From Marinifilum flexuosum (GTDB lineage: Bacteria; Bacteroidota; Bacteroidia; Bacteroidales; Marinifilaceae), in the NCBI RefSeq assembly GCF_003610555.1, contig NZ_RAPQ01000008.1, positions 612,490 to 676,489 of the forward strand: DNA of 64,000 nt, in the 5' to 3' direction. The translations under genes and the position numbers were made by a program. The notes beneath the pieces are model-generated. The model was not told where the DNA came from, did not search any database, and saw only the letters and a program-made list of their open reading frames with translations. Every line of letters begins with the position of its first letter. Position 1 is the stretch's first letter. Of the stretch, positions 45,755 to 59,709 are shown piece after piece.

Positions 45755-45869
45755 GAGCAAGGGCATGCTTCCACCGAGAGCAGGGTCGTGCTCCTACCGA
45801 GAGCAGGGGTGTGCTCCTATCGAGAGCAGGGGTGTGCTCCTACCGAGAGCAGGGGTATGCTCAAATGGG
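45755..45869. repeat. Five tandem 23-bp palindromic repeats
   Basis: Units start at 45755, 45778, 45801, 45824 and 45847. The unit is GAGCAGGGGTGTGCTCCTAC plus CGA. Each carries its own inverted repeat GAGCA...TGCTC with a 6-nt G-rich loop. Units 3 and 4 differ at one base; units 1 and 5 are the most diverged, and unit 5 keeps only its first 16 bases. The block is far more GC-rich than its surroundings, and lies between convergent genes. Confidence 0.93.
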
Positions 45870-57986: not shown

Positions 57987-58679
57987 ATGGATACCTTAAT
58001 TCAATTGGATAAAGAGCTTTTTATGTGGTTTAATAGCCACAATACACCATTTTGGGATGTTGTAATGATGTTTTTTACCCGAAAAGAATTTTGGATTCCA
58101 TTGTACCTTTTGCTTTTGTATCAGATTTACAAAGTAAAAGGAAAAGAAGCCATTTATTGGATTTTAGGTGCATTTTTACTTATATTTTTGTGCGACCAGA
58201 TTTCTACTCAACTATTCAAAAATGTGTTTGAAAGATTTCGCCCAAGTCACGATCCTAGTTTGAAAGGAGTTGTAAATTTGGTTAGTGGTTATACAGGTGG
58301 TCGATATGGATTTGTATCCTCTCATGCAACAAATTCATTCGGTTTTGCACTCTTTACATCTCTACTATTTAGAAATAAATTATACACATTCTTCATATTT
58401 TCTTGGTCTTTATTGGTAGTTTATACCCGTGTTTATCTGGGAGTTCATTTTCCGGGTGATATCATTGGAGGAATGATTTTAGGATTGATCATTGGATACG
58501 GCGTTTATCGATTAATCAAATGGTTTTCCAACTCACGCAAAGGACCAATAACTCGAGGAAGACGAAACATTCAATCTCTTTCTTATTCTGCAGCCTGGTT
58601 GCTTTTAGGAGTTGCTTCTTTCGAAATCATTACCATTTGCTTGGTGGTAAGAAAACTGTTGAAATACGGCTTGTTTTAG
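57987..58679 (+). CDS. PAP2-family membrane phosphatase
   Basis: A 230-residue inner-membrane protein with about five or six helices. The three-part acid-phosphatase signature is present: KNVFERFRPSHD near 85-96 (K-x6-R-P form), GRYGFVSSHATNSFG near 112-126 (PSGH-like, here SSHA) and RVYLGVHFPGDIIGG near 151-165 with the catalytic His. Relatives dephosphorylate phosphatidate, phosphatidylglycerol phosphate or undecaprenyl pyrophosphate. The substrate here is unassigned. It ends the hpt-adk-obgE run. Confidence 0.88.
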   Translation: MDTLIQLDKELFMWFNSHNTPFWDVVMMFFTRKEFWIPLYLLLLYQIYKVKGKEAIYWILGAFLLIFLCDQISTQLFKNVFERFRPSHDPSLKGVVNLVSGYTGGRYGFVSSHATNSFGFALFTSLLFRNKLYTFFIFSWSLLVVYTRVYLGVHFPGDIIGGMILGLIIGYGVYRLIKWFSNSRKGPITRGRRNIQSLSYSAAWLLLGVASFEIITICLVVRKLLKYGLF

Positions 58680-58711
58680 AAATCGGTTAAATTTATCGAC
58701 TGTCAAAAGGA

Positions 58712-59340
58712 GTAGCAAACTCCGGTTTGTAGGAAATTACTCTTGAAATTTGCTCAGAAACTCCGATCAGTCTATTCTCACTCTAGAGGAGAAGTTAGAA
58801 ATCCGGAGTAGCGAAATTTGCCTTGTAAATTGGATTGAGAAAGCCAGATTTGTAAAATTCCAGTGTGAAATCCTTTCAGAAACTCAGATTAATCCATTTT
58901 CATTGTAAAAAAGGAGTAAAATAAGCTGGAGAAATACAATTTACATTGAAAATAGGAGTGGGAAATATAGATTTCTAAAATTTAACCTGAAAATTCTATC
59001 AGAAACTCAGATTTTTCCTTTTTCACTCTAAAAAAGAGTGAGAAATCCAGATAAATGAAAATAAAATTGAAAAATGGAAGTAAGAAATCGAGATTTTAGA
59101 AATTTCAATATAAAACGCTTTCAGAAGAACAGTTTACTTGTGTTTTAAAGGGAAAAAGCTTTGCGAAACTTAGTTTTATAGAAAATACCATTGAAAATCG
59201 ACTCAGAAATTCAGATTTGGAAAAAAACAAGCAAAATTACATCCAGAAATATGACGGACTCTAATGTTCCATTTAAGAACTCTTGGAAACTCATATTTTT
59301 GAAAAAACGGAATGTAATTTCATTCCAATGAAATGGTGGT
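58712..59340. repeat. Degenerate 41-bp tandem array with 123-bp higher-order period
   Basis: A GAAA(C/T)TCCGATTT-like core recurs at about 58717, 58758, 58799, 58840, 58880, 58920, 58963, 59003, 59043, 59085, 59126 and 59166, then less evenly at 59247, 59287 and 59331. Spacings are almost always 40-43 bp. Every third unit is most alike: TCAGAAACTC blocks begin at 58754, 58876 and 58999, with a weaker one at 59122. All six frames contain stops. The array fills much of the 1,056-bp gap between the PAP2 gene and parE. Confidence 0.85.
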
Positions 59341-59709
59341 AAGCTGATAGAATTTTATTCTCAGGGTATTTCTTCAGGCATAAAAAAAACATGGAAATGA
59401 AACATGAAAAATGAGGACCAAGCAGATCATTTTTACTTTTTTATTATCCATTCATAGTCATGCTTCGATAGCTTGATTTAATGTCGATTTAGGTTTTAAA
59501 TTTTGTATTTCTCATGATTATGGTTAAGTTTAAGTGTTGAAATTTATTAAATTTAGAGCTTGTGTTAATTTGGAATGAATTTGATTTTTAATTCATTTAA
59601 ATTGATTTTTAGAGAAATAAGTTTTCACTATTGTTTTCTGAACGTATGATTCCTCTTGTCTTTTAACAGGCTGTTGATAAACTACTTTCTTAGGAATCGT
59701 TCTTTTAGC
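59341..59709. other. AT-rich upstream region of parE, no gene seen
   Basis: Between the repeat array and the parE promoter I see runs of A and T but no open frame, clear hairpin or further 41-bp units. Confidence 0.45.

What the first reader, a model, noticed from the sequence alone, without database searches (positions are those of the whole stretch)
58712..59340. Decayed 41-bp tandem array with a 123-bp higher-order period upstream of parE
Direct reading shows a GAAA-x-TC-x-GATTT-type core about every 40-43 bp for at least 12 consecutive units. Units three apart resemble each other more than neighbours do (TCAGAAACTC blocks at 58754, 58876, 58999, weaker at 59122), giving a 122-123 bp superperiod. 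That is the signature of a triplet expanded after its three sub-units had diverged. All frames carry stops. 41 bp is close to four helical turns, so the phased A/T runs could bend DNA next to a topoisomerase gene; 123 bp is also 41 codons, so a decayed coding repeat is an alternative. Function is inference.
Basis: partly seen in the sequence, partly recalled or inferred. Interest (0 to 1): 0.72.

Follow-up and report, generated by a model that had tools for sequence, protein, structure and literature searches.

The report
Orphan copy of a gene-linked repeat array
The 41-base repeat stretch before parE is real and looks like a stray copy of a kind of repeat array that normally sits just upstream of genes for an uncharacterised protein family (DUF6261), a gene-plus-array pairing for which my paper searches found no description.

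Summary
The array is real: autocorrelation at lags 122, 123 and 41 stands far above shuffles, about 15 units over 58682-59329. It is not a parE feature: three sister genomes have 269-273 bp between the same two genes, against 1059 bp here. At least two more arrays of the type lie in this genome, one just upstream of a DUF6261 gene. That led to the main result. DUF6261 genes carry an upstream array of 41-42 bp units: 38 of 49 reach z>=5, against 0 of 49 downstream regions and 0 of 94 other open frames; of 11 more genes, in genomes not used before, 7 reach z>=5, some in another class of the phylum. Unit sequences are mostly unrelated between paralogs, yet close relatives of a protein usually share unit type and orientation. 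The period stays near four helical turns, A/T steps are phased at a quarter unit, and many arrays, though not the window's type, match their own reverse complement. I read this as DUF6261 binding its cognate array as a phased nucleoprotein assembly, the window array being an orphan platform. The association is shown; binding is inferred.

The parts
58682..59329 (+). tandem array of about 15 units of 41 bp (type 'a'), superperiod 122-123 bp; an orphan array with no DUF6261 gene beside it
   Evidence: autocorrelation; unit alignment; none of the 10 own-genome matches lies in the window
58679..59515 (.). stretch absent from the orthologous gap of three sister species (gap about 790 bp longer here); left edge at the PAP2 stop codon, right edge uncertain (59514-59559)
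   Evidence: gap 1059 bp here against 270, 269 and 273 bp in G001, G002, G003; alignments
58783..58904 (+). triplet 1 (sub-units B-C-A)
   Evidence: alignment A1; model R1 match
58905..59027 (+). triplet 2 (sub-units B-C-A)
   Evidence: alignment A1; model R1 match
59028..59150 (+). triplet 3 (sub-units B-C-A, diverged end)
   Evidence: alignment A1; model R1 match
59192..59231 (+). terminal-type unit (CAGAAA.TCAGATTTGG..AAAAACAA), also near the same end of the mutS2 array and, with small differences, of the DUF6261-linked array
   Evidence: unit rows, compared by eye; not tested statistically
57987..58679 (+). flanking PAP2-family gene
   Evidence: Pfam PF01569
   Evidence: translation; one close match in each of 29 of 31 genomes

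Best explanation
The window array is an orphan member of a gene-array system. In this system a roughly 240-residue helical protein (DUF6261, and at least one further unnamed family) is encoded just downstream of its own array of 41-42 bp units. Shown here: the gene-array association in several families and two classes of the phylum, the near-constant period, the tracking of unit type by protein relatedness, and insertion differences of orphan arrays between species. Inferred: the protein recognises its cognate units on DNA, side by side on one face of the helix (units near four turns, half-units near two turns in some arrays), and builds a nucleoprotein assembly. The array beside the gene would act as operator and nucleation site; orphan arrays such as the one at parE would be extra platforms that spread or were exchanged between loci and may affect neighbouring genes. 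The array has no job specific to parE.
For: Association: z>=5 at lag 41/42 upstream in 38 of 49 DUF6261 genes, downstream 0 of 49, other open frames of 200 aa or more 0 of 94 (3 of 97 controls scored high and all three were DUF6261 genes). Genomes not used before: 7 of 11 at z>=5, 9 of 11 at z>=4, downstream 0 of 11 at z>=4. Best lag where the maximum z is >=5: 41 in 20, 42 in 11, 81-84 in 8, 40 in 1. Cognate tracking: same-strand cross-score >=60 in 19 of 20 pairs with protein identity >=70%, 18 of 24 at 50-70%, 3 of 32 at 40-50%, 9 of 987 below 25%. DNA rather than RNA: no strand preference in folding (median z -2.1 and -2.3, Wilcoxon p 0.62); stem mismatches G.T 91 against A.C 103; A/T-step power raised at P/4 (geometric mean ratio 2.3, 35 of 62 arrays above 3); 34 of 51 arrays match their own reverse complement at 1.5 times or more the better of two controls that keep the tandem period. 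Orphans: mutS2 array in G000, G002, G003 and contig C246 of G004, absent in G001 (73 bp gap); parE array only in G000; an orphan in another genus, G714, which also has the cognate gene with its array.
Against: No binding or expression data. The predicted DUF6261 fold is a generic helical bundle without a recognised DNA-binding domain and the proteins are acidic (median pI 5.2 of 60). The window's own unit type shows no self-complementarity (L097, L107, L156, L158 at background). A/T-step power is also raised at P/6 (ratio 3.1), and in the window array at P/3 (9.3, against 12.1 at P/4), neither a helical period. Two DUF6261 proteins 69% identical have unrelated units (L104, L105), likewise L198 and three relatives at 60-63%, and L117/L124 at 72% score low, hard to square with strict sequence recognition. 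Some arrays end 1-31 bp before the start codon, so those may be transcribed. Of five arrays seen in 464 kb of this genome, three (window, L200, L203) have no such gene beside them. A 43-bp array lies downstream of one DUF6261 gene (L149), outside the lags counted.
Confidence: 0.5

Rival explanations
1. [quoted passage not shown]
For: Array just upstream of one gene, as in ToxIN (PMC8860590, passages). Folding energies below shuffles on both strands (27 and 26 of 50 with z<-2). In one unit type G.T mismatches exceed A.C in stems (L115 13:1, L116 10:4). Some arrays abut the start codon.
Against: No strand preference overall; overall G.T 91 against A.C 103. Up to about 17 diverged units, against 3-5.6 repeats per ToxI cluster in that paper. 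Orphan arrays exist without a gene beside them.
Confidence: 0.2
2. Selfish or mobile element: arrays (alone or with DUF6261) are copied between loci, the protein or a helper does the copying, and no host function is served.
For: Species-specific insertion at parE. The mutS2 array is missing in the sister G001 (tree). The M28-DUF5686 gap holds DUF6261-b with its array in G000 but an a-type orphan array in G714. Arrays in different loci share a terminal unit (by eye). A DDE-transposase gene follows the DUF6261 gene in G009 (L065).
Against: The parE array is only 66-71% identical to each of 12 other a-type arrays, not what a recent copy would show, while the nearest sister differs by 14% at third codon positions. 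No recombinase domain in DUF6261 itself. No match with one query protein each in viral contigs, plasmids and phages. Non-palindromic gene-linked arrays of close relatives keep one orientation.
Confidence: 0.2
3. Ordinary decayed satellite or minisatellite with no function, expanded by slippage.
For: Low identity between units; superperiods of 2-3 units are the usual mark of expansion. Three of five arrays seen in 464 kb have no gene of these families beside them.
Against: Slippage alone would not place arrays of unrelated sequence but equal period upstream of one gene family and spare its downstream side and other open frames. A strict scan of 464 kb for lags 30-59 gave three hits at lag 42, one at 46 and none at other lags (the window array itself is too diverged for that threshold).
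Confidence: 0.06
4. Intrinsically bent DNA that regulates parE.
For: A-tracts phased at 10.25 bp, p=0.002.
Against: Absent before parE in G001, G002, G003, G009 and G011 (gaps 259-273 bp). The array ends about 400 bp before the parE start, and the last stretch before parE is conserved in species without the array.
Confidence: 0.04

Closest known systems
F plasmid centromere sopC/parS-F with SopB (ParB-F)
   Same: Twelve 43-bp tandem repeats containing ten 16-bp inverted repeats bound by the partition protein (PMC6238139, passages); period close to 41-43 bp. That sopC lies beside the gene of its binding protein is recalled.
   Different: No ParA-type ATPase among eight neighbour proteins in four loci. 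No ParB family among the Pfam and NCBIfam hits of the DUF6261 proteins scanned. Array is upstream of a lone gene, chromosomal, with many paralogous pairs per genome.
Type III toxin-antitoxin (ToxIN)
   Same: Tandem repeats upstream of a single gene; repeats differ in length and sequence between clusters (PMC8860590, passages).
   Different: Repeat length is nearly constant here; many diverged units; no strand-specific RNA signal overall; orphan arrays; protein modelled as a helical bundle.
DUF6261 (PF19775)
   Same: The linked genes were found by this Pfam family or by an alignment of its relatives.
   Different: I found no description of the array: the one paper naming DUF6261 is, by its title and abstract start in the search listing, about Streptococcus oralis daptomycin resistance. 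The a-type protein of this genome scores below the cut-off (20.5 against 27 bits).

Membership tests
DUF6261-linked array (as defined here) | 41-42 bp tandem units directly upstream of a DUF6261 gene | tested here: not met
   No DUF6261 match lies in the window (own-genome search); the array shares unit type and triplet order with one that has such a gene. Hence 'orphan'.
DUF6261 (PF19775) | Pfam gathering score for the a-type linked protein | tested here: inconclusive
   Paralog b 45.4 and the G009 ortholog 36.8 bits pass 27; the a-type of this genome, 20.5, fails and the M. fragile ortholog has no hit; the other three align to the first at 38, 61 and 78% identity.
ParABS partition (sopC-like) | tandem repeats of about 43 bp carrying an inverted repeat | tested here: inconclusive
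   Period close; self-complementarity in 34-39 of 51 arrays, depending on the control, but not in the window's type.
ParABS partition (sopC-like) | ParB-type binding protein and ParA ATPase gene nearby | tested here: not met
   Pfam scan of four DUF6261 proteins and eight neighbour proteins in L055, L057, L058, L065 shows neither; other loci not scanned.
Type III toxin-antitoxin | toxin with the ToxN endoribonuclease fold | tested here: inconclusive
Type III toxin-antitoxin | terminator between repeats and gene; repeats transcribed and processed | not testable with these tools
   No expression data; terminators were not scanned.
Anti-phage defence | match to a PADLOC model | tested here: not met
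   Eight proteins scanned, one match at E 0.036 only.

The most novel reading that the evidence does not exclude
A new class of chromosomal, single-protein, array-based DNA-organising system: paralogous helical-bundle proteins, each with a private helically phased array, that condense or mark chromosomal sites (including orphan arrays near housekeeping genes such as parE, mutS2 and lepA), with recognition diverging so that paralogs do not cross-talk.
Probability: 0.3. Interest if true: 0.92.

Novelty: categorically new. Interest (0 to 1): 0.8.

Why it matters
It ties a protein family of unknown function to a specific DNA feature by a statistical link seen in several families and two classes of Bacteroidota, and so gives that family a testable hypothesis. 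Repeats that keep their length but not their sequence are an unusual pattern; it recurs with a second family that shows no profile similarity. If the proteins bind their arrays, one genome offers about a dozen parallel protein-DNA pairs for studying how recognition diverges.

Tried and rejected

DUF6261 genes without a clear array (z<4), 8 of 49: L102, L113 (but lag 84 z 6.1), L114, L127, L133, L137, L147, L158 (but lag 122 z 5.1). Three lie between 4 and 5: L120, L126 and, printed as 5.0, L162. Left out before that count: L109, L112, L121, L123, L128, L139 (a disrupted copy, no array), L157 (too little upstream sequence), the duplicates L155, L160, L163, and L143, L145, L146, L148, L150-L154 (second fetches of genes already counted). 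Downstream, one of 49 reaches z 4.0 (L097); the 43-bp array downstream of L149 falls outside lags 41/42. In one search, 2 of 13 new loci (L187, L192) were dropped because the script found no open frame; G618 and G525 share a genus with G077 of the first set. The hits in G040 and G047 were inspected and not counted as arrays of this kind; the G701 hit is short and weak. G004 (80% complete, 4% contamination) carries two mutS2 matches, so its arrays may come from another Marinifilum; G714 is 6% contaminated. Own-genome search with R1 scored 150 of 9498 candidates, so further arrays may exist.

Full report
What is there. The array upstream of parE is real. Profile alignment gives about 15 units of 41 bp over 58682-59329. 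Three sub-unit types repeat in fixed order, which makes the 122-123 bp superperiod. All frames carry stops, and Rfam at gathering scores found only a tRNA in the window, L002 and L003.

Where else it occurs. Searches of the window's own genome found two more arrays of this type (one search scored 150 of 9498 candidates, so more may exist). One lies right after the stop of a gene I take as mutS2 (name recalled from its sequence, not tested against a family library). The other lies about 150 bp upstream of, and antisense to, a 247-aa gene. The sub-unit order and a similar terminal unit recur there (by eye). Among 56 genomes of the family, the own one included, 7 have the type at E<=1e-5; one of these, G701, is short and weak. 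Named hits of the linked gene are mostly Marinifilum and Labilibaculum.

The parE copy is an insertion difference. The gap between PAP2 and parE is 1059 bp here, 269-273 bp in G001, G002 and G003, which have 97-98% identical ParE, and 259 and 270 bp in G009 and G011. A three-gene tree puts G001 as sister of G000 with support 100. The array beside mutS2 is present in G000, G002 and G003 and on one contig of G004, but absent in G001, G009, G011, G012, G014 and G015 and at the second mutS2 of G004. G001 has no match to the a-type model, and its two DUF6261 matches score far below the a type. An a-type array upstream of lepA occurs in G003 and G004 only, of ten genomes looked at. Orthologous mutS2 arrays are 78-83% identical (92% for G002 and G004), but the parE array is only 66-71% identical to each of 12 others. 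It is therefore not a recent copy of an array seen here; older origin, transfer and faster decay cannot be told apart.

The link to DUF6261. The 247-aa gene belongs to the DUF6261 group through its relatives: a paralog and an ortholog pass the Pfam cut-off, it does not itself. This genome has at least 13 copies: 10 plus three more, one of them disrupted. Eleven of the 12 others have z>=5 at lag 41/42 upstream, with units that look unrelated. In the control test 38 of 49 DUF6261 genes reached z>=5 upstream, 0 of 49 downstream (one at 4.0; a 43-bp array downstream of L149 is outside the lags counted), and 3 of 97 control open frames, all three being DUF6261 genes caught in the control loci. The Pfam family is rare: 5 of 295 genomes of the class and 11 of 395 of the phylum, the two samples overlapping. 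In genomes first met, 7 of 11 genes passed z>=5, including members of another class of the phylum. Many of the 49 are orthologs within one genus and so are not independent. Outside it, z>=5 was seen in 6 of 7 genes of G306, 3 of 3 of G163, 2 of 3 of G077, 0 of 1 of G088, 4 of 5 of G618 (the fifth 4.9), 2 of 2 of G655, 1 of 2 of G403, 0 of 1 of G525 (4.1) and 0 of 1 of G689.

Unit type follows the protein. Arrays of pairs with protein identity of 50% or more mostly match on the same strand (37 of 44); pairs under 25% rarely do (9 of 987). The a-type and b-type motifs are shared across genera. There are clear exceptions: L104 and L105 (69% identical), L198 with three relatives (60-63%) and, less so, L117 and L124 (72%). 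So units can be replaced while the period stays.

DNA or RNA. Of 51 arrays 38 score 35 bits or more against their own reverse complement. A control with the sequence only reversed or only complemented also reaches 35 in 21 of 51, so the fairer figures are 39 of 51 above both controls and 34 by 1.5 times. The window's type is not among them. Folding energies are lower than shuffles on both strands with no strand preference, and stem mismatches show no excess of G.T. A/T steps are phased at a quarter of the unit: geometric mean power ratio 2.3, 35 of 62 arrays above 3, window array 12.1. The sixth harmonic is raised more (3.1), and in the window array the third is also high (9.3). In the second family half-units of 21 bp are plain. 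I take this as favouring DNA-level recognition with helical phasing, without proof. Against it stand the acidic pI and the lack of any recognised DNA-binding domain in a confident all-helical model (pLDDT 91.8; searches).

A second family. A de novo scan of 400 kb of this genome plus the window found, besides the window array, four arrays of 42-43 bp. Two lie upstream of two related genes of about 236 aa with no Pfam match and no profile relation to DUF6261. The eight close members found (orthologs of two genes in five genomes) and two distant ones (L230, L232) have arrays upstream; two other distant ones (L224, L229) do not. Its fold prediction is all-helical at modest confidence (pLDDT 71, two sequences). 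The other two arrays (L200, L203) have no gene of either family seen beside them. The arrangement is thus wider than DUF6261, and orphans are common.

Orphans elsewhere. G714, of another genus, has the a-type gene with its array and, separately, an a-type array without a DUF6261 gene within the 3.1-kb locus held. That orphan lies between genes matching the M28-peptidase and DUF5686 genes (75% and 70% identical) whose gap in the window's genome holds DUF6261-b with its array.

Verdict. The best-supported account is a gene-array system in which a helical protein recognises its own phased array, with the window holding an orphan array. Shown: association, near-constant period, tracking, insertion differences. 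Inferred: binding, assembly and any effect on neighbours.

Noticed in passing
L211:15316-16625 and L218:18617-19946 (own genome C1 near 255-257 kb and 398-400 kb): Second family of about 236-aa proteins without Pfam match, each with an upstream 42-bp array, in several members with a 21-bp half-unit.
   Followed up: partly
L230 and L232, upstream of genes starting at 1237 and 1243 (gene strand): Distant relatives of that second family (235-243 aa, acidic tail), also with 42-43 bp arrays; in L232 the 21-bp half-unit dominates.
   Followed up: partly
L203:18362-18601 and L200:16337-16683: Two further 42-43 bp arrays with no DUF6261 or second-family gene seen beside them: one after a Bro-N gene, one at the 3' end of a minus-strand gene that looks rhodanese-like (by eye).
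   Followed up: no
L184 (G015), gap upstream of lepA: A lag-42 signal (z 7.2) that is not of the a type, before lepA in another genus; its neighbour genes were not looked at.
   Followed up: no
window 45755-45862: A 23-bp tandem repeat, 4.7 copies, with a GAGCA...TGCTC palindrome in the unit, between two genes.
   Followed up: partly
downstream of the a-type DUF6261 gene in L107 and of its remnant in L112: A strong repeat signal at lag 242-245 (z 13-19), not examined further.
   Followed up: no
L149, downstream of the DUF6261 gene: A 43-bp period signal (z 14.1) downstream of this gene, in addition to the upstream array.
   Followed up: no
L064 / G002:C17:255216-255500: In Marinifilum sp. D714 the a-type DUF6261 match covers only residues 153-247 and its array about four units, while the mutS2 array stays long.
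   Followed up: partly
L098 against L108, upstream regions: Between two species the b-type array (50-80%) and gene (75-87%) differ far more than the flank beyond them (96-100%), as if gene and array change together.
   Followed up: no
L065:7398-8294: A DDE-transposase gene follows the DUF6261 gene in G009.
   Followed up: no
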